NCBI GenBank assembly: GCA_001314545.1 | Contig: LIHN01000018.1 | Location: 1 to 64,000, forward strand | DNA length: 64,000 nucleotides | Reading direction: 5' to 3' | Source: Bacteroidetes bacterium HLUCCA01 | GTDB lineage: Bacteria; Bacteroidota; Rhodothermia; Balneolales; HLUCCA01 | Shown here: positions 20,150 through 38,698 of the stretch, one piece after another | Numbering within the stretch: position 1 is the first letter of the stretch | How the letters are laid out: the number at the start of each line of letters is the position of its first letter | Position numbers and translations under genes: made by a program | Notes under the pieces: generated by a model | Seen by the model: the letters and a program-made list of their open reading frames with translations, nothing else | Told to the model about the DNA's origin: nothing | Databases searched by the model: none

Positions 20150-23100
20150 TTATTTCCGGCGGGAAACGACCAATACCTGCTCAAATCCATACTCATTCAG
20201 CAGCTCGTTGTACATCTGTATGGCATTACCCCATCGCGGAATATCGCGCACCGATACCGTGTACAAGCCGACACAACGATTGAAGGTTACCTCGAAGGGA
20301 AGGCCGGTTCGCCGGACGAAGTCATCACGCATACGATTGGCCATGCTCTCGCGTGCATACGCCCCCACCTGCACAATGAACAGGTATTCATCGGGTTTCA
20401 CATGACTGGGAACCACCACAAAGGCATCGGCGAATTCTGTCTCCTGCAGAATGCGTTCTAGCCGTTCACAGACATCCCGCCACTGTTGGGAGGGCACGGT
20501 CTGAATCTTGTACATGCTGTCGCGAAGATCTTCAACCACCTGAACCTGAAGTCCGTAGCGGTCGCGGGCCAGCTGCGCGTGCGCTTCCGCCAGCGAGCGG
20601 GTGTTCTGCGCACCAATCTGTACGGCAAACATAAGCTCGAAGGAGTCATATTCCTCATCGGTGATGACAAAGGCATCATCGAAATCGGTCCGGGTATGCA
20701 GGATGTGCAGGATTTCATCGACCTGCTCCTGAGAGGTCAGCTCGCTGCTGAACAGCCTGTACGTCTCCGTTTCCGGACTATACTGAAACTCAAACAGCAA
20801 TCCGGTTGCCTGTTCGGCCAGATAATGGGCCATGATGATGCGCGGCAAGGTGTTCATGACGGCCGTCTGAATGCGGAACGACTGCGGCTCGGGTTCGGGT
20901 TCGGGAAGAACGATTACCTCCGGCTCGGCAGAACGAAGTTCAAAATCCAGCCCTTCCACAAAATCCCCGAATTCGGTAGCTACGATGCTGACCTCACGAT
21001 ACGCCGGTTCGGCTGTCACGTTCAGCAGCGCCAGCTGGGTGCTGTCGGGCTGAAGGCGATACCGTCCCGGACGCACCTCCATTTTGTAGAACGAGCCGTC
21101 GAAGAAGGTTCGGATCGCATCCACCTGCCCGGTCTCCAGGTTTTCCAGTCGCATAGTCAGACCGCTCACGCCCTCGGGCTGGTCCCGGAGCATGCGGGTT
21201 ACCATTCCGTCAATGATACCGGTGCGGACAAAAGCCACATCGATGACTTTAAACTGATTGGGATCGGTGACAATGGAGAATTTTTCACGCACTGCAGTCA
21301 GACTCGGATCGCGGACCAGGGCCTCGTTGACCTCCACGTTGTAGGCGTCGTATTGGCGCAGCTGGGTGAAAATAGCGCGGTCTTTTTTGTAGAAGGAACG
21401 GGTTCCGGCGCCCACCAGACGAATGGCATTGTTGCCCAGGAGCTCATCGCCGGGTGAAAATCGGCCTGAGCCGTCGTTGTCTACGAAATTATTGGCTACC
21501 AGCGCGGCGCGACCCACCTGCTGGCGGTTGTCAAACACGAAGATATGGTCGTCATGGAAGTAGCCGATGGAGCCCCGTACGGCCTGGTTGATGACCTGAC
21601 TGCCCCCGGAGGACCGCACCGAGGTGTTGAAACGCGCCGAGGGGATGTCAAAACTCAGCGATATGAACAGGGCATTCTGGTTGTTCGGCACGAAGCGGGT
21701 GTAGGAAACCTGCAGCTGACCGGTACTCAGAATCCTGCGGGAGGCGGAAAACTCGACGCGCTCCATACTGCCGAGGTTTTGTCGCCACTCGATCAGGTTC
21801 CGGAAGAAGATACCGCGAAGCGGGGCCCACACGTCCGTGGTTCGGGGCGTGGAGTAGCTGGTGGTCAGGGTGTAGCGGTTTTGGGAGAGGGTTTGCCCGG
21901 CCACGATACGTTGCAGCGACCGAAATCCGCCGGAGACCGACAACGTCCGGAATCGGGTGGTGACGTTGGCGTTGTAACTGCGCAGACTCAGGTCGGTATA
22001 TTCGCTGTTGTCGACGCCGGCCCGCACGAACAGTGGGATGAACCGGTTGGGCAGGTTCACAAATCCGCTGAATCCGTACTGAAAATCCAGGTTGTTGTTG
22101 ATGGTGCGGTAGGTGCCGCGGTAGTTGTTGAAATAGCCGTTGAAAAAATTACTGTTCAGCGACTGATACGTCACATTGAACTGCTCGTATTTGGTGGGGG
22201 CTACCTGGATGTTGGTAATCACGTCGCGCAGCCATCGGGCACTGTGCTCAGCCACGATGAGCGACTCCTCCTGGGGGCCTTCCTGGTATTCGGCCCGCAA
22301 GCGCAGGGTGTGATTCAGGTTAATTCCGTACGAGGTAGTCAGCACGCCCAGCCAGTAGCCTTCGGGCTGCAGGTTGGTGGCCACACTGCGACCTACCGTG
22401 GCGGTGTAAAAGTACTCATCGGGCGGGGCGAAGTAGAAGGGGATGTTCAACCGGCGATTCAGCTCACTGACCTGCCCGTCCGGGGCGTAGACTACCACGC
22501 GGATGTCGTTGATTCCGTAGGTAATGGGCAGCCGGACGTTGTACTGCCCGGTTTCATCGACGGTGAAGAAATCAAAAAGGCGGTCGTTGATAAAAACCTC
22601 GACTTCTGAGTCGGGCGAGGCCATTTCAACGAGGTTGAACTCATCAATGACACGGGTGGGATACAGGGGTTCGTTGGTGACGGAGACGCCCCGGGTGCGT
22701 TGTCGGACCAGGTTACCGCGCGGGGCCACATCGCCCACGTAAATCTGTCGCACGAAACCTTTCGGACGGTAATAGCGCCAGCGGACGTTGCTGAAAACCG
22801 CTTCGTCAAAGCCGCCCTGCGACTGCCGCATGCTTACACTGCCCTGCACATCGCCGTGGAGGATTTCAACGCCGCCGGTGAAGGAGCCGGTTGCCGAGTA
22901 ATTTTCGAAGTCCTGGGTGTTGGCGTTCAGGTTGTAGTCCAGGAAGCCGCCGTTGAACAGTTTGGGCTGTCGTCCGATCTGCGGCTGGTAGATTTCGCGG
23001 CTGTTGGTTTGCGACTGAATCCGGGCGCGCAGGCGCTGGCGCTCCTGGCGGACCAGGATGGGAACCCGTTCGGAGGTAAAAAGGCGTACGCTGAGCAGTC

Positions 23101-23536
23101 CGAGGTCGACCCGGAATTCGAACTCGAAGATTTCCTGATAGATGGCCGGGGAAAGGTAGATATCGAACTGACCCACGATGAAATCATCGGCGGTGAAGGT
23201 CCCGGAGCGGTCGCGGTACTGCCAGGTCATGGCCGTGAAATCCAGGGCGAAGCTGCTGGCATCGGTGTTGATGTAGCCGGTAATGCGCAGGTTATCCCAG
23301 TCGGTTTCGTGGTAGATCAGCAGGGGGTCGAACAGTTCGGCGAAGGGCAGGAAGAAGGCATCGTTCTGGTAGATACCGACTATATTTGTGGCGACCAGCT
23401 GCATGTACCGGTATTCGAAGAATACCTCGTCGTAATCAGTTGCTGTCTGCGCGCTGGGCGTGGAAAGCGTACTGAAAAAAAACGCAATGAGTAAGGTGAT
23501 TAATTTCAGGGGGGTGCGCATCGGCCGAGGTTTCAT
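20150..23536 (-). CDS. Outer-membrane usher-like assembly protein with triple SPOR-like tail
   Basis: An 1128-residue protein that by context and architecture should assemble secreted subunits in the outer membrane. A signal peptide is at about 1-29. An N-terminal beta domain (about 35-160) follows, then YVGDVAPRG near 265. A plug-like beta-sandwich lies at about 310-355 (VEVFINDRLFDFFTVDETGQ, ITYGINDIRVVVY), as in fimbrial ushers. A long run of alternating aromatic strands (about 365-700) fits a barrel. An Asp-rich segment (DNDGSGRFSPGDE) and a carboxypeptidase-regulatory-like domain (about 770-830) precede a PEPEPEP linker. The last 243 residues are three 77-83-residue SPOR-like repeats (886, 969, 1052 onward; for example LFIVQVGAYARESMANRM). 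It lies 54 bp after the chaperone gene. Confidence 0.7.
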   Translation of the reverse strand: MKPRPMRTPLKLITLLIAFFFSTLSTPSAQTATDYDEVFFEYRYMQLVATNIVGIYQNDAFFLPFAELFDPLLIYHETDWDNLRITGYINTDASSFALDFTAMTWQYRDRSGTFTADDFIVGQFDIYLSPAIYQEIFEFEFRVDLGLLSVRLFTSERVPILVRQERQRLRARIQSQTNSREIYQPQIGRQPKLFNGGFLDYNLNANTQDFENYSATGSFTGGVEILHGDVQGSVSMRQSQGGFDEAVFSNVRWRYYRPKGFVRQIYVGDVAPRGNLVRQRTRGVSVTNEPLYPTRVIDEFNLVEMASPDSEVEVFINDRLFDFFTVDETGQYNVRLPITYGINDIRVVVYAPDGQVSELNRRLNIPFYFAPPDEYFYTATVGRSVATNLQPEGYWLGVLTTSYGINLNHTLRLRAEYQEGPQEESLIVAEHSARWLRDVITNIQVAPTKYEQFNVTYQSLNSNFFNGYFNNYRGTYRTINNNLDFQYGFSGFVNLPNRFIPLFVRAGVDNSEYTDLSLRSYNANVTTRFRTLSVSGGFRSLQRIVAGQTLSQNRYTLTTSYSTPRTTDVWAPLRGIFFRNLIEWRQNLGSMERVEFSASRRILSTGQLQVSYTRFVPNNQNALFISLSFDIPSARFNTSVRSSGGSQVINQAVRGSIGYFHDDHIFVFDNRQQVGRAALVANNFVDNDGSGRFSPGDELLGNNAIRLVGAGTRSFYKKDRAIFTQLRQYDAYNVEVNEALVRDPSLTAVREKFSIVTDPNQFKVIDVAFVRTGIIDGMVTRMLRDQPEGVSGLTMRLENLETGQVDAIRTFFDGSFYKMEVRPGRYRLQPDSTQLALLNVTAEPAYREVSIVATEFGDFVEGLDFELRSAEPEVIVLPEPEPEPQSFRIQTAVMNTLPRIIMAHYLAEQATGLLFEFQYSPETETYRLFSSELTSQEQVDEILHILHTRTDFDDAFVITDEEYDSFELMFAVQIGAQNTRSLAEAHAQLARDRYGLQVQVVEDLRDSMYKIQTVPSQQWRDVCERLERILQETEFADAFVVVPSHVKPDEYLFIVQVGAYARESMANRMRDDFVRRTGLPFEVTFNRCVGLYTVSVRDIPRWGNAIQMYNELLNEYGFEQVLVVSRRK

Positions 23537-23590
23537 TCAGGCCTGAAAATACGCAATATGGGCGAAATGGCCGCGATGTGTGAAAGGACT

Positions 23591-24415
23591 CTAATTTACG
23601 GAAACAGCGGCTGAAACCGTTAGGGGCGCCATAGGGAAGTTATTGGCGGCGGGTACATCTTGTCGGGCGGCCTGAAAATTCAGCTCTACGGTGTAATTAC
23701 CGTTAGGAACGAGGTCTTCAGGGAGGACAAAGTTCCGGAAACCATCCACATAGATACTGGTTACGGAGCGGTCTTCATGGACGGTTTGTCCGTTTGCGTT
23801 AAGGACTTTTAATGTAATGGTTCCCAGGAACGGGGCATTTCCGGTCATATCTACATTGTAGCGGAGCACGCGATTTCCGCGCTCTTCGTCGAACAGGTAG
23901 CCGATTTGGTTCACGTCCATTTCAACGGTGGCATCGCCGCGTTTGTACAGGGCCGCGATGACCTGACGGAATACAAAATTCAATTGGGCACCCACAGCGC
24001 CCTCTTCAACAGCGGTCACATCCGCGGCCTGGGGCGTAGCTACCACGGCCAGTCGCGTCCAGTAGCCGCCTTCCGGCATGGTATTCGGGGCACGGGCCTG
24101 GAGCCGGACTACTTGTCGTTGGCCGGGCTGGAGGGTAAAAGCGCGCGGAAAAGCGCGGACAATATCCGTTAAGGAGCGATCATTTTCGGTGGCATCCTCA
24201 TCGAACGCCATGGTCACATAGCCAAGCTCATCGGAAACCGGGTACCCGAACAGGGTTTCGATCTGGATATCCTGGGGCGTATTGGCGTTGTTGATGATCA
24301 TTACCGATGAGAAATTATTCTCGAAAAACAGCATCGTGGGCGAGATAGTCACCTGGGCCCGGGCCTGCAGGGCCAGTGCAAAAGCAAAGAATGCTACGAG
24401 GAAGATGCGTTTCAT
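23591..24415 (-). CDS. PapD-like periplasmic pilus chaperone
   Basis: A 274-residue periplasmic chaperone expected to cap secreted subunits by donating a beta-strand. The signal peptide is at 1-20 (ALALQARA before Gln). The first Ig-like domain (about 21-135) starts with VTISPTMLFF and carries the G1-strand motif PRAFTLQPGQRQVVRLQAR (90-108), the hallmark of PapD/FimC chaperones. The second domain runs from about 140 to 240 (LRYNVDMTGNAPFLGTITLK). A residual C-terminal strand follows. The length is slightly above the usual 230-250. It sits between the subunit gene with its terminator and the usher gene. Motif and context together make the call strong, although overall similarity is low. Confidence 0.75.
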   Translation of the reverse strand: MKRIFLVAFFAFALALQARAQVTISPTMLFFENNFSSVMIINNANTPQDIQIETLFGYPVSDELGYVTMAFDEDATENDRSLTDIVRAFPRAFTLQPGQRQVVRLQARAPNTMPEGGYWTRLAVVATPQAADVTAVEEGAVGAQLNFVFRQVIAALYKRGDATVEMDVNQIGYLFDEERGNRVLRYNVDMTGNAPFLGTITLKVLNANGQTVHEDRSVTSIYVDGFRNFVLPEDLVPNGNYTVELNFQAARQDVPAANNFPMAPLTVSAAVSVN

Positions 24416-24440
24416 AAAGGTAGACTCTGAATTACGGATA

Positions 24441-24472
24441 AAAAAAAAGGCTCCTTAATAATAAGGAACCTT
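24441..24472 (-). terminator. Rho-independent terminator between subunit and chaperone genes
   Basis: On the minus strand, AAGGTTCCTTA (24472-24462), a TTAT loop and TAAGGAGCCTT (24457-24447) form an 11-bp stem with one G-U pair. It is followed by eight T. It lies 24 bp after the stop of the subunit gene and about 26 bp before the chaperone start, so it should end most subunit transcripts and limit read-through into chaperone and usher. Confidence 0.9.
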
Positions 24473-24495
24473 TTTTGAAGAAACTAAAGTGGAGT

Positions 24496-25041
24496 TTAGA
24501 GGAAATCGACTGTTACTACTATGACGCCTGCGTATGAATTTCCTGTTTTGTCACCAAGTTCTGTGGCTGAAATAGTTCCACCGATATTTAAGGTATTTTC
24601 CTCAGCTGAAGACCCTCCTGTACTACTAGCAGCGCCAGGAGTATAACTAACTCGTGTAGTTTCACCTGTGTGATAGTTTAAGGTAATTTCTAGATCTTCG
24701 ACGGCAGAAGGAGCACTAGAATCTAAATTATCCAGTGTAAGGACATTTCCTGCAAGAGTTGCACCTGATCCCGCTGTAATTGTGTATGCGACTGGTGTTC
24801 CCGTGTTAACAGTAACTTGCGCTGCGGTTGCACCTGTTCCAACATTAGAGTTTGCAGTCGTTCCATCAGTATTAATAACTGCAGGGTCTGCTGTATCTGT
24901 AATGTTTCCAAATACCAAATCTGATACTTTCGTTAACTCCAATGATGCATTGATTGATGCTGATGCATTAACATTTTCATTGACTTGTGCAAAAGCCAAA
25001 ACTGGCAGTGCGAAGAGAAGGGTAAAGAGTAATTTTTTCAT
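24496..25041 (-). CDS. DUF4402-like secreted fibre subunit (probable major subunit)
   Basis: A 181-residue secreted protein. The signal peptide is at 1-18 (VLAFA before Gln). The mature N-terminus is a Val/Asn/Ala-rich strand (VNENVNASASINASLELTKV), then the LVFGNI motif seen in DUF4402 proteins. The rest is Thr/Ser/Ala/Gly-rich beta-sheet sequence, ending in YAGVIVVTVDFL. The gene is clearly AT-richer than its neighbours and prefers A/T-ending codons. It is monocistronic, with its own upstream region of 285 bp and a strong terminator. These points suggest a highly expressed major subunit, or a gene of different origin. Its role as a chaperone-usher subunit is inferred from the adjacent chaperone and usher genes. 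Confidence 0.72.
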   Translation of the reverse strand: MKKLLFTLLFALPVLAFAQVNENVNASASINASLELTKVSDLVFGNITDTADPAVINTDGTTANSNVGTGATAAQVTVNTGTPVAYTITAGSGATLAGNVLTLDNLDSSAPSAVEDLEITLNYHTGETTRVSYTPGAASSTGGSSAEENTLNIGGTISATELGDKTGNSYAGVIVVTVDFL

Positions 25042-25101
25042 GACTGTATTGTTTTGTTGTGTAAGTGTAAAGTCGTTTGTGGGTTTTGAACTAGTATTAA
25101 T

Positions 25102-25193
25102 TTAGGAGAGTAAATTCCTTAATAAAATTAGGTTTCGTTAACTCAAGGGGCATTTGGCGGGCAAATCGACCCATTTTGGTTAGGAACTCCTAA
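25102..25193. promoter_or_regulatory. Inverted repeats upstream of the AT-rich subunit gene
   Basis: TTAGGA-AC-TCCTAA at 25180-25193 is a 14-bp palindrome. A further TTAGGAG at 25102-25108 is in inverted orientation to its right half. They lie 60-150 bp before the subunit start in an AT-rich region and may bind a regulator at two sites. No convincing -35/-10 pair was identified. Confidence 0.35.
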
Positions 25194-25326
25194 TTAAGCT
25201 TGACATGGTTTCCAATGCATTGTTGGCGTAAACGCACCGCACACTACCGGGTTCCGGGAATGGAATGGCTACATTCAGACGTATGCTGCCCGGTTTAATC
25301 CATGAATTAAATGAACACACTGCCTA

Positions 25327-25857
25327 TCAATACGTTACTTCGAGGTTGAGCGTTCCCGTGTAGTTACCGCCGGGCACGTCGCCCACGGTGAGTTTGCCGA
25401 ACACGTTGATATTGATGTAGATGTATTCGGGTTCGCCGGTCAGTTGTCCGGGTTCGTTGACGCGAACGGCATTGAATCCTTTAGAGAGCGGCTGCATGGG
25501 TCGACCACCCTCTAATCTCGGTGTCTCGGAAATGTAATAGGCGAAGCCCAGCTCCATGTCGATTCCGCACAGGTCTTCCCCGCACATGATGCCCTCGGTT
25601 TCCAGCTCCAGCTGGTCGGGCGCATCCAGAAACAGTTGCACATCGCTGACATTCAATACCGCCACCTGAAACCAGCCGCTGCCGTTTTCATCGAGTCCGA
25701 CCAGGGCTTCGGAGTTCTGCAACATAGACCCGAAGTCCAGCTCCTGTATGGTCGCGGCACTGACTTCGGAGTCGATGTACACACTGAATTGCAGGAACTG
25801 GGCTTGTGCCGGCAGGGCCAAAAGCAGTGATGCTATGAGTATCAGGGCTACCCGCAT
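25327..25857 (-). CDS. Small secreted DUF4402-like subunit
   Basis: A 176-residue secreted protein, third gene of a coupled three-gene set. The signal peptide is at 1-19 (LALPAQA before Gln). The N-terminal strand QFSVYIDSEVSAATIQELDFGSM carries the LDFG motif of the family. A Cys pair in CGEDLC could form a disulfide. The end YTGTLNLEVTY matches the shared C-terminal strand of the other subunits. Its ATG overlaps the preceding stop (TGATG), which indicates coupled translation. It may be a minor or adaptor subunit of the fibre; that role is inferred from context. Confidence 0.65.
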   Translation of the reverse strand: MRVALILIASLLLALPAQAQFLQFSVYIDSEVSAATIQELDFGSMLQNSEALVGLDENGSGWFQVAVLNVSDVQLFLDAPDQLELETEGIMCGEDLCGIDMELGFAYYISETPRLEGGRPMQPLSKGFNAVRVNEPGQLTGEPEYIYININVFGKLTVGDVPGGNYTGTLNLEVTY

Positions 25858-26477
25858 CAGTTGTAGGTTACCTCAATGGTCAGAGTCGACTCATATGCGC
25901 CTGCTTGATTCGCCGGATCACTTGTTATGGTGCCATAGATGAACAAGAAGGTTGACACCGCAGCCGGAAGGTTAACCCCGGCAATTTCGGGCGTGGGGGG
26001 CGGACCGGGCGGAGCGCCGGCCGTGCGGCGGGTCATGGGATATAGCACAGGATTAATGGTAAAGTCGACCGCCTGGGTGGCATCGGGCATGGTACCGCCG
26101 GAATTATCAAAAGCGAAACCATAGGTGACCGGAATACGGCAATCGACGGTGGTACAGGCCGCGTCCCCGTCCAGGTAAAGAAATCCGTTGTTAATGGTCA
26201 GTCCGGCTCCGGTGATTTCGATGATCACATCCAAAAACGGAAGCCCTTCAATTTCGAGGATAGCAGCGTCACCGGAATCGATTTCAACTTCCTTAGGTGG
26301 CTGGCCTGCGATTACGGGTCCAAATAGCAGGTCGGGATTGATAGCGGTTATCGTTGCCGAGGTAGAATAATACTGTCCGAAATTAATATCCGGTCCGGAG
26401 GGATTGGGCGTAAACTGGGCCTGCATCGCCCAGGGCCATGAAAAAACAATCACCATAAAGAGTATGGTGCTGCGCAT
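25857..26477 (-). CDS. Small secreted DUF4402-like subunit
   Basis: A 206-residue secreted protein, middle gene of the coupled set. The signal peptide is at 1-20 (PWAMQA before Gln). The strand SATITAINPDLLFGPV has the LxFG motif. A Cys pair (CTTVDC), as in the next gene, suggests a disulfide. A Pro-rich loop (GAPPGPPPTPE) precedes the final strand YESTLTIEVTYN. Start and stop overlap neighbouring genes by one base on each side (TGATG). It is probably a minor fibre subunit, inferred from resemblance to its neighbours and from the chaperone and usher nearby. Confidence 0.65.
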   Translation of the reverse strand: MRSTILFMVIVFSWPWAMQAQFTPNPSGPDINFGQYYSTSATITAINPDLLFGPVIAGQPPKEVEIDSGDAAILEIEGLPFLDVIIEITGAGLTINNGFLYLDGDAACTTVDCRIPVTYGFAFDNSGGTMPDATQAVDFTINPVLYPMTRRTAGAPPGPPPTPEIAGVNLPAAVSTFLFIYGTITSDPANQAGAYESTLTIEVTYN

Positions 26478-27022
26478 CAGATAAAATCGATTTCGATGGT
26501 GAATTCCCCTTCGTACTGCCCGAGGATGTCGCCTTCGAGCTGCATGGTGCCTCCGACCCAGAAGAAATACTCGCCGTCTTCACTCATCTGCAGATCGCGG
26601 TTTTCCAGGGTAATGGGTTCGGAAAGAAATTGATTTTCGGTCTGGGCGCCGCTCACGTCGTAGAGAAAGACCAGCGGAGAGCCCCCTCCCACCCGGATCA
26701 GCTCGCGCTGTTCCTGAAATGATACCCGGAACAGCATGCCCGGACTTCCGGAAACGCGCAGTACACCGGCGCCCGGATCTTCGCGGGGGTTTACAGTAAT
26801 GGATTCCTGCCCGGGACTGACCCGACCCAGATTGATATTCGCACGGGTTTCGATGTCGACCGTAGTCTGGATCTGAGCGCTGACCGTGATATTGATAAAC
26901 TGACCGTTATTCTGCCCGTTTTGCCCGTTTTGTGCCATGGTTACACCGGCGGTGGTCAGCAGGAAGACCACAGCGATCAGCATCGCAGCCGGGGAGATAG
27001 CAGGAAGTCGGACAGCAGGCAT
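26477..27022 (-). CDS. Small secreted DUF4402-like subunit
   Basis: A 181-residue secreted protein, first gene of a three-gene operon. The signal peptide ends at about residue 30 (AGVTMA before Gln). It is followed by a short NGQNGQNNGQ repeat. The strand INITVSAQIQTTVDIETRA and the segment INLGRVSPGQESI form the family N-terminal part. It ends in YEGEFTIEIDFI, the common final strand. It has a promoter region with a large inverted repeat, and its stop overlaps the next start. A tip or adaptor role is possible but not shown. Confidence 0.68.
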   Translation of the reverse strand: MPAVRLPAISPAAMLIAVVFLLTTAGVTMAQNGQNGQNNGQFINITVSAQIQTTVDIETRANINLGRVSPGQESITVNPREDPGAGVLRVSGSPGMLFRVSFQEQRELIRVGGGSPLVFLYDVSGAQTENQFLSEPITLENRDLQMSEDGEYFFWVGGTMQLEGDILGQYEGEFTIEIDFI

Positions 27023-27252: not shown

Positions 27253-30200
27253 TTACCGGATCAGTGTCATTTTCCGGGTGAAACTACCCTCGGGGGTGAT
27301 CATCCTATATATATAGATGCCGCTGGCAACCTGACCGGCATTCCAGCTGACCTCGTAGAACCCGGCCTGGCGAAATTCATCCAGCAGCACGGCCAGTCGC
27401 CGACCGGTGATATCAAAGACTTCCAACCGCACGCGACCGTCGGCGGCCAGTGCGAAGGGCACGGTGGTGGTCGGGTTGAAGGGATTGGGATAATTTTGCT
27501 GCAACCCGAACCCGGCGGGAATATCCGATGGCGGATTGGTCGGGGTGATGGTGATTATGAACCGGGCACGGGACGGGTTGGATTTCATGAGGGCGGGTCC
27601 GTCGGTGCGGTCTGCGATGGGGGCTTTGGGATAGGTCATAACCCAAAGGGAATCGGTGCCGGACGCCGATTGCTTGCGCAGGGTACCGCTGGTGGTCAGG
27701 GAAAGGCTGATACCGGCTTCCAGCGCGCTGCGATCGTACACCTCGCCGGTCTGACGGTCTTCCAGTTCGATGACCCAGTCTTCCGGAAGGTTCTGAAACC
27801 GGTTCAGGGCAAGCTCGACCGAACCGCTGAAGCCCTGTCCCTGAACGGTGGCATCCAGATCCATGGGGAGTTCCAGGGTTCGCGCGAAGCGATCCGGCAG
27901 GTTGTTGATGGCCAGGCGGTCGCCATCGGGATTCACGGAGAACAGGGTGATGTAGGTATCCGACAAGGACTCCAGGCGGTACGCGTCCAGCGGATCGATC
28001 CCGGTGCGGGCCTGGTCGGTGAACATGAACAGAGCCCGGCTGCTCAGCGAATCGGTGGTGGTCACCTGAAATTCAATTTCGGGGTGCGCGGGACGGCGGT
28101 AGAACGTTCCGGAAGTGGTGGTCGACCGGGCGGAGGTGTTCACCTGCAATTCGGGGTTATCAGCTGTGGCTTTGACCCAGAAGCCCTGGAAGGGTTTGAT
28201 GTAGCCGTTCCCCCATCCTGCTACCCCGTTCCATTCCAGGAAATCGCCGTTGCCGCCGTTGGCCTGCTGGTCCCACACGTAGATGGTCGGACTGATATTG
28301 GTTTTGGTCCATCCGGAGGCGTCGTTCCAGAAAATGGTTGACAGGTAAGGGTTGCCCACCAGGTTCCAGCCCTCATCGCCGGTGGCCGTATAGGTGACGG
28401 GCAGGCTGACATCGCCGGCGTTTTCCTGACCGATGACTTCCAGGGTGACGGCCGACTGATTATACCGGCTGTCGGTTGGGACGTCGCCGAAGACGTAGGT
28501 AAACAGACCGCGACCGGGGGTCAGGTCGTCGGTGGCGTTGTCCGGGGCCCGCCAGCGCTGGTTATCGGTGCCCTCAAAGGTTTCATCGTACCAGAGCACA
28601 CTGGGGATAAGGCTGGAGGAAACGCCGAGATCGCTTCCGGTGAATCCCTGGGTGGTGAGTTCGGAGAACAGGTTGGCGTAATCGGTATTGATGGGCGAGG
28701 AAAGCAGTCGCCAGCCGCCGGGTGTGCCGGAAGGCGGGACCCAGAGTTGTCGCAGAGCGCGCAGCAGTCCGCCGTTGTAGGCGATGTTCTCCGCCACGAA
28801 GGCCTGATCGGAGCTGACTGTGAGGTTGCCGCTGGTGAGGGTAGCGGTGCCGGTTACCTGCAGATTGTTGGTGAGGGTGACGCCCGCGGCGTTGCTGACC
28901 TGCAGATTCAGCACCGAAGCCGGGAGTCCGCTGCCGGTTATCTGGGCTGCCGCACCGTTGTAGCGGTAGGTGGCATCGGCGCTGAAGCTCCGGGATGCAG
29001 TGCGGATATTGCCGTTGGGGGTATTGGCCGCGATGCCATCTGGCGAGCCGATGCCCAGGGTTCCGCCCTCTTCAAGGGTGAAGGACCCGTCGCCGAGGAT
29101 AATCCGGGCGCCGGTGAGCAGGATGCCGGACCCGTCGCCGGTGTCGGTGACGGTGATGGTGCCGCCGGCGTTCAGGGTGACGTTGGCGGTGAGGGTTACT
29201 TCGTGGTCGGTTCCGGCGTTACCGCCGATGATCACGGTGCTGGTCGGACCGGGCGCTTCGCTGTGGGCCGGACCGTCGTGCCCGGTGACCGACCAGGTGG
29301 GGGCGTCCTCGTAGTTGCCGGAAGTCCGGCTATAATAAATGACGGTTCCGTCAAGGCGACCTACCGTGTAGTAGCCATTTTCCAGATCGTCTGCGTTTAC
29401 AGCGAACTGCACCCGGTTGACGGCGCTGAACGAAGCCGTTGCCGTGATCACCTGTACGCCGGCCGTCGCGAAGTCGCCATCGGTGGGATGATAGAGCAGC
29501 ACGAAGGTATCGTTCGGGTCGGGAACCGGCAGGTTGTAGTCGGTGAAATCAAAGTACACGGCCAGGGTGCCGCCGGTAGTGACAACCGATTTTTCCAGGT
29601 ACCACACACGGTTCCAGCGTTCATAGCTGGACTCCCCGATGGCCAGGGTCGATGCGGCCAGTCCGGTGAGGTTGTTGTGTGCGGCCATGAGGTAGCGCTG
29701 GCTTGCTGTCAGGAAGGTGAAGGCGCCGGTGGCGTTGAAACCGAGTCCGCCGGAGGTGAAGACGGTCTGATTGACCAGATCGGTGGAGGTGATACGACCG
29801 ATGCCGCTGAGCTGGTGGTAGAAATCGGGGTCGGGCGGGGTGAAATAGGTGATATTGGCATCGATGCCCACACCCCATCGCGCGGACAGGTAGTTCTGCA
29901 GGAGGATGAATTCGGTGGTGTTGAGCACACGGTCGTGCATGACGACCTCGCCTATCCGACCCCGGAAATAGTCGGTGGTGCGGAACCGGCCCAGCGCGGC
30001 GCCGTTCATGCTGGTGAGGGACTGGGCCGTGCCACCCGAACCGATTTGGGTTCCGTTGCGCCAGAAACGTCGGGATGGGGTGGGAATGGCGGTGTTCAGA
30101 TTGAAGGTGTGGAGCTCCCCGTCAATGCTGGTGGTGAAGGCGGGTACGGTGGCGGTGTAGTTATTGCCCCAATGGTGATGTTCGAAGGTGGTGTTGCCGT

Positions 30201-33200
30201 TCCAGAACAGGTGCAGGTTTTGATTGGCGCCTGAAGTGGCACCGCCGAAGTAGATGTTTCGACCAGTGAGCTGTTCGGAGCGGTCGACCATAAAGGTGAG
30301 GGTGTAATCGGTGCCGGTCAGCCAGGTTCCGTCAAAGGGCAGGAATTCGGCATTGTCAAAAATCAGGGATGGTCGACCTCCGAAGGCACCGGTGTTGCTG
30401 CGTACCGGTCGGCGCGCGGCATCCGCCTGTTCGGCATGACGGGCGTTGGGCGACTTATCGCGCAGCACGGCTACGGGGTCGCCGAAGGCGGCGGGGGTAG
30501 TGGCAGCCGCATCGCTGAAGGCATAGCTGTCATCGGCCACATCGAACCAGACCTGCAGGTCATCGTTGGCCAGTCCGGCCGGGTAGTAACGCAGGATATC
30601 GAAATCGACAAAGGTGACGGTGGCGGTGGCCGTTACCGGGTTGCCGTTCAGGGTGGCCGAAACGGTTGCGCTGCCGGGGGAAGCCGGCGCGGTAATCGGT
30701 ATCGTATAGGTGCCGTTGTTCAGATCGGTCACGGTGCCCAGCGTGCCGGAGGTGGTTGAAAATACGACGGTTTGTCCGCCGGAACCGACCAGGTTGCCGT
30801 TGGCATCGCGAACTTCCAGCACAATGGTCGACTGGGCGGTGCCGTTGGCGGTGATCTGATCGGGAACGGCCTGAAGGGTGGATTCGGCCAGGTCAGCCGG
30901 ACCGGCGGTGTAGTCGAATTCCAGGGTGGTGCCGGTCGGACTGCCGTTGACTGCAGCGGTCAGGGTGGCGGTTCCGATCTGGGTGGGCGCGGTCAGCGTG
31001 GCGGTGTAGGTTCCATCGCCGTTGTCGGTCACGGCGCTGAGGCTGCCGGAGGTGATGCTCAGGGTGACGACGGCCCCACCGGTGGTCAGATTGGCGCCGA
31101 AGGTATCGCGGAGCTGGACGGTCACGGTGGACTGATCGGTGCCGTTGGCAACCAGGGAGGTGGTGGTGGCGCTGAGCAGGGTCTCGGCCGGATCGGGCGC
31201 GCCGGACTGAAACGTAACCGTGGCCTGACTGGTAATCGGGTCGCCGTTGATGGTACCGGTGATGGTGGCCGTACCGGCCGAGTTGGCGGAGGTGAGTACG
31301 GCGGTGTAGGTACCGTCGCCGTTATCACTGACCGCACTCAGGGTGCCGGAGGTGGTCGACAGGGTGACCGCATCCCCTCCCACTGTGCGATTCGCGCCGT
31401 TTGCAAAGCGGGCCTGTACGGTGATCTGGGAGGTGGAGGCGCCGTCGGCTTCAATGACGGTGGGCTGGGCAGCAATCGTGGTTTCGGCGGGGTCGGCCTC
31501 GGCGGTCGACAGGAAAAAGCCCAGGGTGAGGTAACCGTCCTGCAGGTCGTCGGAGTCGATGGTGAAAGAGACGATATTCCCGGAGACGCTGGCGGCGCTG
31601 CTGAGTACCTGGTTGTCTTCAAAGATGCTGAAATCATCCTGCGAGGCGTTGAAAAGCAGGCCGTATTGACCGGTACTGACGCCGGGGGTGACATCCAGTA
31701 CGTCAAGGTCGAAGGAAATGGTAACCTCACCCCCGCTGCCCGGCTGGGTGATGTCTGCGTACCAGACGCGGTTGGGGCGCTCATACAGGGCGGTTGCGGT
31801 GAACAGGGTCTGGGCGTGGAGTCCGGTGGCGTTGTTGTGGGCACTGAGCAGGAAATGGCCGTCGGTACTCAGAAATTCGGCGGTTGTAGACTGCAGTCCG
31901 AGTCCGCCGGAGGTGAAGGCGGTGCTGAGAACGTGGTCTGTGGAGGTGGTTCGACCAATACCTGCCAGCTGATGGGTAAACGGGTTTGATCCGTTGTAAT
32001 AGTCGGAGGCGGGCGCGAGTGTTGTGCCCCATTTGGCGGCGGCGTAGTTCTCCAGGATGAGTCGCTCGGTGGTGTTGAGCAGCCGGTCATACATGTAGGT
32101 TTCCCCGAAGCGACCCCGGAAAAACTCGGCGTTCTGATAGGCTCCCAGGCTGGCACCTTCCATGGAGATGAGGGTGGCATTGGTGCCGCCGGTTCCCAGC
32201 AGGGCCCCGTTTCGCCAGGCCGAGCGGGCGTTGGATCCCAACGAGGTATTCAGGTTGAAAGTGTGGATTTCGCCGGCCAGATCGGGGGTGTAAGCGGGTA
32301 CCGTTACGTCAAAATTGTTGTTCCAATGATGAAATTCCAGGGTTGTGCTGTTGGCCCAGAACAGGTGCAGGTTGGTATTCTCCCCTCCTCCGGTTCCGCC
32401 AAAGTAGATATTTCTTCCGCCGGAATCGGTTGACCGGTCTACGAAGAAACCGAGCGTATATTCCGTTCCGGCCAGCCAGGTTCCGTCAAAGGGAAGAAAC
32501 TCAGCGTTGTTGAAAATCAACGAGGGCCGAGCGCCGAAGGCACCGGTGAGACTGAGTTCGGGACGGAGTGCGGAGGTGGGCTGGATGGCGTGCCGGCCCG
32601 CGGGCGACTTATCATTGAGTCGGGCGATGGTCTGCCCGTTGGTGGCCTGGGCTGTCCCGGAGGGATTTGAAAAACGGGTCTGAGGGTCGGCTGCATCGAA
32701 CCAGATCTGCAGGTTGGTATTATCGAGGCCGCCGGGATAGTAGTCCAGCACCAGGGGCTGCGGTACGGTAAAGCTGGCACCTCCGAAAAACTTGTAGTGG
32801 TTGGTACTGATCTGTCCGTTGGTGGTATTGTTTTCCTGGATGCGCAGGTTTTGTATCCAAAGGGTGTACTGGGTGTTGTCCTGGATGGTAAAAACGGCGG
32901 GATTGAACTCGATTTCAACGGTATTGGCGTTGATGAGGCTGGCTGTGGCGGGGGTTTCTCCGCTGCCGAGAACCTGGTAGTTGGCAGCTCGTTCAGCGGC
33001 GTTGGTTCCGGTTCCGGGGATCAGGGAGATGGGGTTGCCCTCGAATTCCGTGTTGAAAAATATGCGCAGACGGTTGGCTGTGACGACCTCGATGGAGACT
33101 ACATAGGGACGATTTACGTCGATTTCAGGTTCACCGGTGACCGTCCCGATGACGTTGAGGGTGGTTTCATTGACGTGGTTATAGTCGCCGGTGGGATCAA

Positions 33201-34275
33201 CAGTCATGTTGTTGGCTACGGTGACGTCAATGTCGGCGGTTACCGTAGTAGCATCGTCGATGACCAGGTTGTGGAAGGTTACGTCCTGGTTGGAGTTGGA
33301 CGACAGATTAACATCACCGCTGAGGGTGACGGTGCTGCTTCCGGCGTCAAAATCGCTGCCCCCATTCAGGGCCACATCGCCCTGGAAAAGAATCTGGCCA
33401 TCCCCGGCTGAGAAATCCCCGCCCCCTGTGAAGGTGGATGACCCATAGACGTTGAATGAGCCCTGATTCAGGAAGAATTCCGATCCGCCGGTCTGGATGA
33501 AATTACCGCCAACAACGGGCGGGCCCGGCGAGCCTACATTCACGGTACCGGTCTGGATTTCCAGCAGGGCGCTGGAGGTGTGGGTAAAGTTACCCAGGAT
33601 GGTGAAGGTGCCGTCATCCACCAGAATATCACCATCGTTCACAGAGGCGTTGGTCAGCGTGGCCGAACCGCTCTGTACGTTCAGGGTACCGTTGTTGTTG
33701 ATATTGATGGTGGCGGCGGTAAGGTCGGCGGTGTGCAGATTGATCTGGCCGTTGAGGCTGAGGGTTCCGCCGATGGTGACGGTTGCAAAACGGGCGTCAA
33801 AGGTTTTATTGTTGGCGACCGACAGGTTTCCGTCTACCGTGAGCGTACCGGGTGAGCCTCCGTCGGTTACGTTCAGGTCATTGCCCAAATCCATATTTCC
33901 ACCCACATCCAGGGAGAAGTCGGTTCCTACGATATTGGCGGAGTTGCCGGTGTTGAGGTTCCCGTTTACTGTGAGGGTTACGCCGGCGCCGATGGTCAGG
34001 GTCTGGTTGTTCGAACTCATGCTCAGGCTGCCGATGGTGGTGCTGGCATTGAGAACCGGTTCATCGCGGTTATTGTTGATGAAATTGATGTTCACCGCGG
34101 TGGATGGCCCCGGCACACCATTCGACCAGTTGGCCGGATTGAACCAGTTGGTGTCGGCGTTGCCGTTCCAGGTGGTAGACTGTGCCATTAGCGGAATGAA
34201 TGGTACCACGAGTACCACCAGGCTCAGCAATATCCTCCGGATGGATTTTTGATATGACGGGAATGGGGACAGCAT
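27253..34275 (-). CDS. Giant T9SS-sorted adhesin with lectin-like and Ig-like repeats
   Basis: A 2340-residue surface protein. The signal peptide is at 1-31 (IPLMA before Gln). The opening motif WNGNADTNWFNPANWSNGVP is typical of Bacteroidota adhesins and leads into a beta-solenoid-like region (about 50-380). A concanavalin/LamG-like module with a trailing domain fills about 505-922. Three bacterial Ig-like (Big-1/invasin) repeats of about 101 residues follow (922-1225). A second copy of the lectin-like module spans about 1225-1642. The C-terminal 700 residues match those of the neighbouring giant protein and end in the T9SS tail (NYPNPFNPTT near 2264, ending MTLIR). It is likely an adhesin exported by T9SS; the ligand is unknown. 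Confidence 0.85.
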   Translation of the reverse strand: MLSPFPSYQKSIRRILLSLVVLVVPFIPLMAQSTTWNGNADTNWFNPANWSNGVPGPSTAVNINFINNNRDEPVLNASTTIGSLSMSSNNQTLTIGAGVTLTVNGNLNTGNSANIVGTDFSLDVGGNMDLGNDLNVTDGGSPGTLTVDGNLSVANNKTFDARFATVTIGGTLSLNGQINLHTADLTAATININNNGTLNVQSGSATLTNASVNDGDILVDDGTFTILGNFTHTSSALLEIQTGTVNVGSPGPPVVGGNFIQTGGSEFFLNQGSFNVYGSSTFTGGGDFSAGDGQILFQGDVALNGGSDFDAGSSTVTLSGDVNLSSNSNQDVTFHNLVIDDATTVTADIDVTVANNMTVDPTGDYNHVNETTLNVIGTVTGEPEIDVNRPYVVSIEVVTANRLRIFFNTEFEGNPISLIPGTGTNAAERAANYQVLGSGETPATASLINANTVEIEFNPAVFTIQDNTQYTLWIQNLRIQENNTTNGQISTNHYKFFGGASFTVPQPLVLDYYPGGLDNTNLQIWFDAADPQTRFSNPSGTAQATNGQTIARLNDKSPAGRHAIQPTSALRPELSLTGAFGARPSLIFNNAEFLPFDGTWLAGTEYTLGFFVDRSTDSGGRNIYFGGTGGGENTNLHLFWANSTTLEFHHWNNNFDVTVPAYTPDLAGEIHTFNLNTSLGSNARSAWRNGALLGTGGTNATLISMEGASLGAYQNAEFFRGRFGETYMYDRLLNTTERLILENYAAAKWGTTLAPASDYYNGSNPFTHQLAGIGRTTSTDHVLSTAFTSGGLGLQSTTAEFLSTDGHFLLSAHNNATGLHAQTLFTATALYERPNRVWYADITQPGSGGEVTISFDLDVLDVTPGVSTGQYGLLFNASQDDFSIFEDNQVLSSAASVSGNIVSFTIDSDDLQDGYLTLGFFLSTAEADPAETTIAAQPTVIEADGASTSQITVQARFANGANRTVGGDAVTLSTTSGTLSAVSDNGDGTYTAVLTSANSAGTATITGTINGDPITSQATVTFQSGAPDPAETLLSATTTSLVANGTDQSTVTVQLRDTFGANLTTGGAVVTLSITSGSLSAVTDNGDGTYTATLTAPTQIGTATLTAAVNGSPTGTTLEFDYTAGPADLAESTLQAVPDQITANGTAQSTIVLEVRDANGNLVGSGGQTVVFSTTSGTLGTVTDLNNGTYTIPITAPASPGSATVSATLNGNPVTATATVTFVDFDILRYYPAGLANDDLQVWFDVADDSYAFSDAAATTPAAFGDPVAVLRDKSPNARHAEQADAARRPVRSNTGAFGGRPSLIFDNAEFLPFDGTWLTGTDYTLTFMVDRSEQLTGRNIYFGGATSGANQNLHLFWNGNTTFEHHHWGNNYTATVPAFTTSIDGELHTFNLNTAIPTPSRRFWRNGTQIGSGGTAQSLTSMNGAALGRFRTTDYFRGRIGEVVMHDRVLNTTEFILLQNYLSARWGVGIDANITYFTPPDPDFYHQLSGIGRITSTDLVNQTVFTSGGLGFNATGAFTFLTASQRYLMAAHNNLTGLAASTLAIGESSYERWNRVWYLEKSVVTTGGTLAVYFDFTDYNLPVPDPNDTFVLLYHPTDGDFATAGVQVITATASFSAVNRVQFAVNADDLENGYYTVGRLDGTVIYYSRTSGNYEDAPTWSVTGHDGPAHSEAPGPTSTVIIGGNAGTDHEVTLTANVTLNAGGTITVTDTGDGSGILLTGARIILGDGSFTLEEGGTLGIGSPDGIAANTPNGNIRTASRSFSADATYRYNGAAAQITGSGLPASVLNLQVSNAAGVTLTNNLQVTGTATLTSGNLTVSSDQAFVAENIAYNGGLLRALRQLWVPPSGTPGGWRLLSSPINTDYANLFSELTTQGFTGSDLGVSSSLIPSVLWYDETFEGTDNQRWRAPDNATDDLTPGRGLFTYVFGDVPTDSRYNQSAVTLEVIGQENAGDVSLPVTYTATGDEGWNLVGNPYLSTIFWNDASGWTKTNISPTIYVWDQQANGGNGDFLEWNGVAGWGNGYIKPFQGFWVKATADNPELQVNTSARSTTTSGTFYRRPAHPEIEFQVTTTDSLSSRALFMFTDQARTGIDPLDAYRLESLSDTYITLFSVNPDGDRLAINNLPDRFARTLELPMDLDATVQGQGFSGSVELALNRFQNLPEDWVIELEDRQTGEVYDRSALEAGISLSLTTSGTLRKQSASGTDSLWVMTYPKAPIADRTDGPALMKSNPSRARFIITITPTNPPSDIPAGFGLQQNYPNPFNPTTTVPFALAADGRVRLEVFDITGRRLAVLLDEFRQAGFYEVSWNAGQVASGIYIYRMITPEGSFTRKMTLIR
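29349..32760 (-). repeat. Duplicated lectin-like module inside the giant adhesin
   Basis: Two copies of a module of about 417 codons (32760-31509 and 30600-29349) flank the Ig-like repeats. Both have DYYPGGL/RYYPAGL at the start, then RPSLIF, NAEFLPFDGTWL, GRNIYFGG and HQL.GIGR..STD in the same order. They are diverged in the DNA but clearly derive from one internal duplication. Confidence 0.85.
30600..31509 (-). repeat. Three tandem Ig-like (Big-1) repeats
   Basis: Three units of about 101 codons each begin with D(P/L)AE(T/S) and share ANGT.QSTI.V, the strand TTSGTL..V.D.(N)NGTYT and a final A.V.F strand. This is the invasin/intimin Big-1 pattern, used to project binding domains from the surface. 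Confidence 0.85.
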
Positions 34276-34460: not shown

Positions 34461-37400
34461 TTACCGGATCAGCGTCACTTTTTGCGTGAAGCTGCCTTCG
34501 AGGGTGGTCATGCGAATCAGATAAATCCCGCTGGCCAGTCCCGCAGCGTCGAAACGCACGTCATACCGTCCCGCCTGCAGGTAGTCATTGACCAGGGATT
34601 GCACCAGCCGACCGGTTACATCGAAGACCTGCAGCTGCACCGGTCCGTCTTCGGCGATGGCGTACGGTATGTTCGTGGTGGGATTAAAGGGATTGGGGTA
34701 ATTGGGGGAAAGGGCGAATTCGGCCGGGATTTCCTCGGAGGCCTCATTGGGAGTAATGCGAAGGGTGAAGCGGGCCGTTTCGGGGTTGGATTTGAGCAGA
34801 ACGGGACGGATTTCAGGTTGAACCGTGTCTTCAGGCCCGGTCCGGACTACGGCCTTGCTGAGTTGTCCGGCGGTTTCGGTCAGGTTGAAGGAAAATCCAT
34901 CGGCTGAAGCGGACAGAACCCGGGTGTCACCAGACTGATTATCGATGATTTCGAGGTCCCAGTGGAGCGGAATCCGGGTTCGGGCGCCCAGGCGAACCTC
35001 TACCCTGCCTTCCAGCGGTGCGTTGTTTTCCATTCCGTCGATGTTCAGGGGAATTTCCAGGGTACGGGCAAAGCGATTGGGCAGGTTGTTGATGGCGAGG
35101 CGCTCACCGTCGCGACTGACGGTGTATACATCCAGGTAGGTGCCGGCCAGCGACTGCAGCCGGTAGGCATCGTGAGCATCCAAGTCCGAGCGACCTTCAT
35201 CGGTGAACATGAGGAAGGTTCGTGCGTGCAGGTCTGAGGTTTCAAAAACCAGCTCGATTTCATCGTGGTTGGTCAACTGCCGGTAGAAGGTGGTCTGACC
35301 ACCCGTGGTTTTGGCATTTTGGTTGACGCTGAGTACTGGACTGGCGGCTTCGGCTTTGACCCAGAAGGCCTGGAAGGGCATAATGATACCGCTGCCGGTG
35401 GTATTATCCTGGTTGAGCGGATCGTTCAGGGTGCCGGTAGTACCGTTCCAGAAACGGAATTGGCCGGTGTTTTCATCCCAGACGTAGATGGTATTACCCA
35501 TATTGGTTTTGGTCCAGCCGGAGGCTTCATCCCAGTCGATGGCGGCCAGGAAGGGGTTGCCCACCAGGTTCCAGCCGTCGTCGCCGGTTGGGGTGTAGTT
35601 AACCGGGAGGGATACCGTTCCGGAGCTGCCCTCGTTTTGCTGTCCGGTCACTTCAAGCTGGGGACTGGACTGGTTGTAGCGCTGATCGCCGGTGATATTG
35701 CCGAAGATGTAGGTGAAGTAGCCTCTTCCGGAACTGATGGTATTGGCGGCATCGGCGAGGGTTCGCCAGCGCTGATTGTCGGTTCCTTCGATGGTTTCAT
35801 TGTACCAGAGTACGCTGGGCATGAGCGTGGCGTAGGTGGTATCCAGGGCAGTATCATTGAAGGTGTTGCCCAGGCTGGATCCGGTAAATCCCTGGGTAGT
35901 GATTCCGCTGAGGAAGTTGGCGTAGGTGGTGTTGATGGGACTGGAAAGCAATCGCCATCCCCCTGGCGTCACACCGTCTTGCGGTACGGTGATGGAGCGA
36001 AGGGCGCGGAACTGGCCGCCATTGTAGGTGGGATTGTCGGCCACCAGGCTTCGGTCGGAGCTGATGATGAAATCGCCCGCATCCAGCGTCAGCGTACCAT
36101 CTACAGCGGTATTGGCGGTGAGCGTCACCCCATTGGCGTTGTTGACGATGAGATTGTTCACCGAAACGGGCAGTCCGTCACCGGTATTTTGGGCTGCGTT
36201 GCCGTTGTAGGTATAGTTGGCTCCGATAGAGAACGTTCGGGTGGTGGTTTGCACGTTGCCGGATGCGCTGCCGGCAGTAATTCCATCCGCTGACCCGATG
36301 GAGATACTGCCTCCGCTTTGCAGGTCGAAGGCGCCGTCGCCGGTGATAATTTTATCCGAGGTAACAAGAGTGCCGCCATTGGCAACGGCCAGGGTTCCGG
36401 TGGCGTTGACGGTCACGGACTGCAGCGGGGCGAGGGCGACATTGGAAGCCACCGAAATCGTGTTGTTATTACCGATGACAACCTGGTCGCCGGACTGTCC
36501 GGGAATACGGGTGGCGGGGGTTCCGGTGTGCGAGCCGGTTGCCCAGCTGGAGGTTACATCCCAGTTACCGTTTGCGGCGCTGTAGAAAATAGGCGGACTG
36601 GCGTCCACGAAAAGCTTACGGTGGGGACTGCTGACCGAATTATTATCGGTGCTTGTCAGGTTTTGCACCCACAGGTAGTAATTTTTGTCTTCCTGGATGG
36701 TTCCCTGGAGCTGGATGATCACCGCGGCGGGGTCAGAGCCGTCCTGCACGGCGGAGGTTATGCCGGTTATATCGGTGGATCCGGCGTCAGTGAATGCGCC
36801 TGACAGCAGATCGCGCACCTTGTAGTTACCAATGGTTTCCAGCGGACCGGTATTCATAGCCTTACTGAAAACAGCTTTGATGGAAGACGCGCTGAGCACT
36901 TCGATGGAGAGCATATAAGGGGCAGGACCGAGAATCTGGGGGTCACCTGTAACATCCCCCACTACGTTCAGGGTGGTATTATTTTCGTTCTCATAGTTGG
37001 CATCGGGGTCTACCTCCATATTATTCAGTACCGTAACGTTCTGGAATGAGGTCACATCCGAATTTTCATCAATTTCAAGGTTATAGAACTCGATATCCGA
37101 GTTTGATCCGGTTACCGTCTGCGAGCCGTCACCGCTGAAAATAAACGTACTTTCATCCGGATTGAAGGTTCCGGAATTGTCGAACGTTCCGCCCTCAAAA
37201 ATAATCGTGCTGGTCCCGGCGTCCAATGTACCGCCTGACTGAGCCAGGGTTACGTCGCCGGAAAGGGTTACCGTTCCGCTGCCGGCGTCCAGGGTTCCGG
37301 AGTTCTGGAAAGTTGCATCGCCGCTCATGGTCAGGCTGCCACTGCCCACGCTCACGCTTCCTGAGTTCTGGAAGGTTCCGTTGCCTCCAACAAACATACT

Positions 37401-38630: not shown

Positions 38631-38698
38631 TGTGGAGTCCGTTTCAAATAGTTTGTAGAGCAATATAACGTTACATCTTAACCAATGCATTGTTAAAT

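What the first reader, a model, noticed from the sequence alone, without database searches (positions are those of the whole stretch)
20150..27022. A chaperone-usher-like fibre system in a T9SS-bearing Bacteroidota-group genome
The minus-strand order is three coupled small secreted subunits, one AT-rich subunit, a PapD-like chaperone and a large usher-like outer-membrane protein. Chaperone-usher pili are best known from Proteobacteria; surface fibres of Bacteroidota are usually lipoprotein-type (FimA/Mfa) pili or T9SS cargo. The chaperone motif (PRAFTLQPGQRQVVRL) is visible directly. The usher assignment rests on a plug-like domain, a barrel-like middle and context. That the subunits polymerise by strand exchange is inference.
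Basis: partly seen in the sequence, partly recalled or inferred. Interest (0 to 1): 0.85.

Follow-up and report, generated by a model that had tools for sequence, protein, structure and literature searches.

The report
Wall-anchored usher fibre operon, motor-linked relatives
This stretch encodes a real chaperone-usher machine for building surface fibres in a Balneolales bacterium, with an outer-membrane pore that carries its own predicted cell-wall-binding tail; in many relatives that tail is replaced by a helper domain and the operon continues into the parts of a flagellum-like ion-driven motor, a pairing we did not find described.

Summary
Six minus-strand genes at 20150-27022 encode four pilin-like subunits, a PapD-type chaperone and an usher. 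The 1128-residue protein matches E. coli K-12 ushers by profile comparison (E 2e-16). Its AlphaFold model has an N-terminal domain, six strands, a plug, 18 more strands and a C-terminal domain; its best 17 Foldseek hits are all FimD or PapC (E down to 1.5e-30). The chaperone matches K-12 chaperones (E 8e-7) but lacks the classical Arg anchor, so it is of the non-classical type. Subunit 1 folds like CfaB, FimA and CsuA/B. All 39 related ushers with enough upstream sequence have the chaperone upstream.

The window's usher ends in three SPOR-like (peptidoglycan-binding) domains. In 21 related operons the usher instead ends in a TPR tail and is followed by a FliF-FliG fusion and, where covered, usually a TPR lipoprotein, MotA and MotB. 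Tail type and motor genes agree in 42 of 42 ushers, across six independent switches. The window's genome has no such motor. I read the window's system as the wall-anchored form of a family that elsewhere appears coupled to a flagellar-type motor. The coupling is inferred, not shown.

The parts
26477..27022 (-). Subunit 1 (pilin-like, DUF4402), signal peptide, C-terminal strand YEGEFTIEIDFI
   Evidence: Pfam DUF4402 E 1.1e-5, above cut-off; AF2 model pLDDT 84.9; Foldseek hits CfaB, FimA, CsuA/B, Caf1
25857..26477 (-). Subunit 2 (pilin-like)
   Evidence: Homologues at the same operon position in relatives; C-terminal YESTLTIEVTYN strand motif
25327..25857 (-). Subunit 3 (pilin-like, weak DUF4402)
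   Evidence: DUF4402 E 0.0023, below cut-off; homologues at the same position
24496..25041 (-). Subunit 4 (pilin-like, in the AT-richer stretch; possibly the major subunit)
   Evidence: Pilin profile match 41 bits; composition; role is inference
23591..24415 (-). PapD-type periplasmic chaperone, non-classical anchor
   Evidence: PapD_N in 17 of 36 family members; hhalign with K-12 chaperones prob 91.7, E 7.8e-7; anchor residues
20150..23536 (-). Outer-membrane usher, 1128 aa
   Evidence: hhalign with K-12 ushers prob 98.7, E 2e-16; AF2 pLDDT 82.6; Foldseek FimD/PapC E 1.5e-30
23075..23431 (-). Usher N-terminal domain (residues 36-154)
   Evidence: Secondary structure of the model; boundary approximate
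21557..22957 (-). 24-strand barrel region (residues 194-660, six strands before and 18 after the plug)
   Evidence: Strand count in the model, made by eye; FimD and PapC translocation-pore hits
22442..22651 (-). Plug domain inside the barrel (residues 296-365)
   Evidence: Strand-rich insert between strands 6 and 7 of the model; Pfam Usher stretch in relatives
20930..21544 (-). Usher C-terminal beta domain(s), CarboxypepD_reg-like (residues 665-869)
   Evidence: Model; CarboxypepD_reg in 23 of 34 members
20153..20878 (-). Tail with three SPOR-like domains (residues 887-1128), predicted peptidoglycan binding
   Evidence: Three alpha/beta repeats in the model; Pfam SPOR E 2.2e-6 on the tail

Best explanation
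The operon is a non-classical chaperone-usher fibre system. Four single-domain subunits are exported to the periplasm and capped by the PapD-like chaperone, which lends a strand and holds the subunit's C-terminal strand. The usher's N-terminal domain receives the complexes, the plug is displaced, and subunits are polymerised by strand exchange and threaded out through the barrel. The usher's three SPOR-like domains bind peptidoglycan, so the pore and its fibre are held fast to the wall. In related operons the same usher core carries a TPR tail in place of the SPOR tail, and the operon goes on into a FliF-FliG fusion, a TPR lipoprotein and a MotA/MotB stator, which may act on the usher or its fibre. 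Shown by computation: homology, fold and synteny of chaperone, usher and subunits; SPOR tail; tail-motor association. Inferred: strand exchange, wall binding, coupling to a motor. The confidence given is for the chaperone-usher identity and mechanism with a SPOR-tailed usher, not for the motor coupling (see the section on the most novel reading).
For: Usher: hhalign E 2e-16 over residues 135-744, Pfam Usher in 5 members, AF2 model with 6+18 strands around a plug, best 17 Foldseek hits all FimD/PapC. Chaperone: with unrelated profile pairs at prob 0.4 and 1.1 as controls. Subunit: Foldseek top hits CfaB, FimA, CsuA/B, Caf1. Synteny. SPOR tail. Tail-motor link: 42 of 42 concordant, six independent pairs, sign test p 0.031; the TPR tail is homologous to the motor lipoprotein, E 1e-24.
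Against: The single window chaperone is below Pfam's cut-off for PapD_N (16.5 vs 23 bits), and the single usher hits no Usher model. The pilin profile gave only a weak match to K-12 pilins (prob 17). No two-domain tip adhesin is visible in the operon. No chaperone model was made. Tail and motor lie side by side, so one recombination can swap both without any functional link. The window's own genome has only ordinary flagellar FliF, FliG and MotA, on another contig.
Confidence: 0.88

Rival explanations
1. A chaperone-usher system that is no more than an ordinary archaic (sigma-type) pilus, with the SPOR tail a minor local addition and the downstream motor genes of relatives an unrelated neighbour cluster.
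For: Archaic systems are already reported in many phyla (PMC9452303). SPOR is a common domain. A paralogous motor cluster (FliFG, ~360 aa predicted barrel protein, TPR lipoprotein, MotA, MotB) exists in some of the same genomes without an usher, so the motor may work alone.
Against: Motor genes follow the usher in 21 of 45 loci, the usher's own tail switches with them in six independent pairs, and that tail is homologous to the motor's lipoprotein.
Confidence: 0.3
2. The large protein is an outer-membrane exporter of another kind, such as a T9SS-linked barrel, and the small proteins are its surface cargo and not pilins.
For: The genome has a T9SS and the gene upstream encodes a T9SS cargo protein.
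Against: Plug between strands 6 and 7, strand count of 24, FimD/PapC as best hits by many orders of magnitude over other barrels, constant PapD-like partner, pilin fold; no T9SS sorting domain was found on the subunits.
Confidence: 0.03
3. The SPOR tails of motor-less ushers arose by deletion of the motor genes, fusing the usher core to the SPOR tail of MotB (or the motor inserted in between), so the window's operon is a relic of a motor-bearing one. This is about history and can be true together with the best explanation.
For: In the Balneola-like family (f4) the triple-SPOR tails of motor-less ushers align nearly end to end with the SPOR-bearing tail of MotB (E down to 1.6e-19), and in several loci the flanking downstream genes are the same.
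Against: For the window's own tail the match to MotB is weak (E 2e-5), and SPOR tails also occur on motor-less ushers outside the order (L059), which suits an ancestral SPOR tail. Within f4, most motor-less tails are nearer to each other than to MotB tails.
Confidence: 0.25

Closest known systems
Archaic (sigma) chaperone-usher pili, type Csu of Acinetobacter baumannii
   Same: Subunit, chaperone, usher operon; non-classical chaperone without the classical anchor Arg; subunits ending at a terminal beta strand; Csu structures among the Foldseek hits of subunit 1
   Different: No two-domain tip adhesin seen; the conserved Arg of the corresponding strand lies two residues away from the Arg of the deepest family members L070 and L071; usher has a SPOR or TPR tail
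Classical FimCD/PapCD pili of E. coli
   Same: Usher architecture of N-terminal domain, barrel with plug, C-terminal domains
   Different: About 12% identity; classical chaperone anchor Arg absent; extra tail on the usher
Flagellar rotor and stator (FliF, FliG, MotA, MotB)
   Same: Relatives carry FliG_M and FliG_C domains, a FliF-like stretch, MotA with invariant prolines, MotB with the membrane Asp
   Different: FliF part short and fused to FliG; an usher as neighbour in place of flagellar genes. Not present in the window
FimA/Mfa1 (type V) pili of Bacteroidales
   Same: Surface fibres in the same phylum, strand-based polymerisation
   Different: Type V pili are lipoprotein-derived and use neither a PapD chaperone nor an usher (general knowledge, not tested here)

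Membership tests
Chaperone-usher pathway | Outer-membrane usher with a 24-strand barrel and a plug between strands 6 and 7 | tested here: met
   AF2 strand order and Foldseek hits; profile match to K-12 ushers
Chaperone-usher pathway | Two-domain PapD-like periplasmic chaperone | tested here: met
   hhalign E 7.8e-7 over domain 1 and PapD_N in 17 of 36 members; no structure model of the chaperone was made, and domain 2 was not matched on its own
Chaperone-usher pathway | Pilin-fold subunits | tested here: met
   Subunit 1: Foldseek hits CfaB, FimA, CsuA/B, Caf1. Subunits 2-4 by homology and motif only
Chaperone-usher pathway | Donor-strand complementation and exchange | not testable with these tools
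   N-terminal alternating stretch after the signal peptide is compatible; no co-fold was possible
Chaperone-usher pathway | Chaperone, usher and subunit genes in one operon | tested here: met
   (same-strand clustering; transcription not tested)
Classical chaperones | Basic anchor residues (Arg8, Lys112 of PapD) | tested here: not met
   Position of Arg8 is A, N, M or I in most members; hhalign puts a non-basic residue at Lys112
Archaic/alternative chaperones | Conserved Arg in strand F of domain 1 (Arg89 of CsuC; PMC4654587) | tested here: inconclusive
   Arg121 in 31 of 36 members, but two residues beyond the Arg of the deepest members
SPOR domain proteins | SPOR fold that binds denuded peptidoglycan | tested here: inconclusive
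   Pfam SPOR E 2.2e-6 and three repeats in the model; binding not testable here

The most novel reading that the evidence does not exclude
Bacteroidota hold a family of motor-driven chaperone-usher fibres: an usher whose TPR tail plugs into a FliF-FliG rotor with a MotA/MotB stator, so that ion flow turns or pulls an outer-membrane usher or its fibre. The window's operon is the parked version, in which the usher holds the wall through its own SPOR domains.
Probability: 0.45. Interest if true: 0.92.

Novelty: new variant of a known kind. Interest (0 to 1): 0.74.

Why it matters
Chaperone-usher assembly is understood to need no energy source at the outer membrane (general knowledge). An usher operon that carries, in many relatives, the rotor and stator of a flagellum-type motor, with an usher tail that changes in step, would be a new way of bringing inner-membrane energy to an outer-membrane fibre, and perhaps a new kind of movement. 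The window's SPOR-tailed usher suggests a second answer to a simple mechanical problem, namely how a fibre pore is held in place under load. The isolate Balneola sp. EhC07 carries the full operon, as does the complete Balneolaceae MAG chromosome CP051242.1, so the idea can be tested.

Tried and rejected
Single-sequence searches of the PDB with the usher and the chaperone gave nothing; only profiles and structure did. The pilin profile against K-12 pilins was too weak to count. A first scan of genome contigs with the usher found nothing; the MotA profile found named Balneola genomes. I looked for the FliF-FliG/MotAB module in the window's own genome: only ordinary flagellar genes are there, so the motor is not claimed for the window. 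Promoter and terminator scans were at chance level. Literature searches for chaperone-usher together with Balneola, or with FliG and MotA, found nothing relevant; the library is incomplete. The ~360-residue partner of the usher-free motor cluster matched no family convincingly. An unrelated-barrel reading of the usher was considered and dropped.

Full report
The observation. Subunits 1 to 3 overlap by one base each; subunit 4 stands 285 bp apart, in the AT-richer kilobase, and is followed by the chaperone and the usher. The genome carries a T9SS component (SprA_N), and the gene just upstream (27253-34275) encodes a 2340-residue T9SS cargo protein with Invasin_D3 domains. The order is probably Balneolales: the same-order genome G010 has a contig of the same length (441607) as JAEPNB010000003.1, a record named Balneola sp., whose MotA is identical to that of G010.

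The usher. The window protein alone hits no usher model in Pfam, NCBIfam or the PDB. The family does: five of 34 members match Pfam Usher and three TcfC, and a genome search with the Usher family lands on these same genes. Against an alignment of six E. coli K-12 ushers the profile scores prob 98.7, E 2e-16 over residues 135-744. The AlphaFold model (34 sequences, pLDDT 82.6, pTM 0.55) shows an N-terminal domain, six strands, a strand-rich plug at 296-365, eighteen further strands, a C-terminal beta region to about 869, and then three alpha/beta repeats. Foldseek ranks seventeen FimD and PapC chains first (E 1.5e-30 to 8e-16); the best unrelated barrels come at about 1e-6.

The chaperone. PapD_N matches 17 of 36 members, and the profile aligns with K-12 chaperones at prob 91.7, E 7.8e-7. 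Two unrelated profile pairs scored prob 0.4 and 1.1. The classical anchor Arg8 is replaced by A, N, M or I in most members, while Pro26, Asn42, Pro90, Gln101 and Arg104 are kept. An Arg in what should be strand F of domain 1 is kept in 31 of 36 (Arg121). [quoted passage not shown] the two-residue offset leaves the equivalence open.

The subunits. DUF4402 is above its cut-off for subunit 1. Most subunits of the family end at a strand of the form YxGxxxxxVxY. The model of subunit 1 (pLDDT 84.9) finds CfaB, FimA, CsuA/B and Caf1 in the PDB, with modest TM-scores (about 0.35-0.45). None of the four subunits is long enough to be a two-domain tip adhesin.

Conservation. Relatives of the usher occur in 28 of 41 near genomes and 63 of 296 across the phylum. 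All 39 ushers with enough upstream sequence have the chaperone upstream, 37 with pilin-like genes.

What lies behind the usher. In the window the next gene, 317 bp on, is an Obg-like GTPase (named from its sequence). In 21 of 45 loci the genes downstream include a fusion with FliG_M and FliG_C domains (E to about 1e-11; TIGR00207 to 1e-17, below its curated cut-off) and a shorter FliF-like part (YscJ_FliF_C E 2e-4, just under cut-off). The same profile also lands on ordinary FliF-sized genes next to fliG. Where the contig goes on there usually follow a TPR lipoprotein, MotA (to 6e-34 against MotP, below the curated cut-off) and MotB with an OmpA domain and the membrane Asp. The order is the same in the isolate Balneola sp. 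EhC07, in the complete MAG chromosome CP051242.1, and in part in two records named Bacteroidales (L137, L139). The genus Balneola is reported to lack genes linked to flagellar assembly (PMC9909488), though flagella were seen in B. vulgaris (PMC5167729).

Tail and motor go together. Motor-linked ushers end in a 110-135 residue TPR tail (TPR_2 in 20 of 21, SPOR in none), homologous to the motor's TPR lipoprotein (prob 99.6, E 1e-24). Of 16 motor-less tails scanned 12 have SPOR and two OmpA, both peptidoglycan-binding families. Across 42 ushers presence of the TPR tail and of the motor match completely, and on the usher tree the motor changes at least six times, each time with the tail (sign test p 0.031). 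Limits: a quick tree, six events, and the tail is DNA next to the motor genes, so one exchange can carry both. In family f4 the SPOR tails of motor-less ushers align with the SPOR-bearing tail of MotB (to 1.6e-19), which points to gene fusion or splitting when the motor was lost or gained.

Reading. The window holds a chaperone-usher system of the non-classical kind in its wall-anchored form. The motor is not in this genome: only ordinary flagellar FliF, FliG and MotA are found, on contig C16. For the relatives a motor acting on the usher or fibre is the reading I find most interesting, at somewhat under even odds, because a paralogous motor cluster without an usher exists in some of the same genomes and because nothing here tests contact or movement.

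Noticed in passing
L045, L050, L051, L058, L097-L106, L134: Operon pilins-chaperone-usher-FliF/FliG fusion-TPR lipoprotein-MotA-MotB, complete in about 14 genomes; not found described in the library searched
   Followed up: yes
L091-L096, L124-L127, L129, L130, L132, L136, L138: A second motor cluster without usher: FliF-FliG fusion, ~360-400 aa protein that looks like a periplasmic domain plus small barrel, TPR lipoprotein, MotA, short MotB; also in a record named Fibrobacteria (L138)
   Followed up: partly
L107, L108: A related motor cluster in another Bacteroidota family with another gene order (barrel-like protein, TPR, MotA, MotB, FliF-FliG fusion)
   Followed up: no
window 27253-34275 and 34461-38690: Two giant T9SS cargo genes upstream of the operon; a similar Invasin_D3/T9SS gene precedes pilin 1 in L045 and L061, so the neighbourhood may be functional
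   Followed up: partly
L053:3055-4398 and neighbours; similar genes in L048, L051, L076: Several relatives have a cluster of small genes with a DUF4900 protein directly before pilin 1
   Followed up: no
L058, L057: Two chaperone genes in one operon, separated by a small pilin-like gene
   Followed up: no
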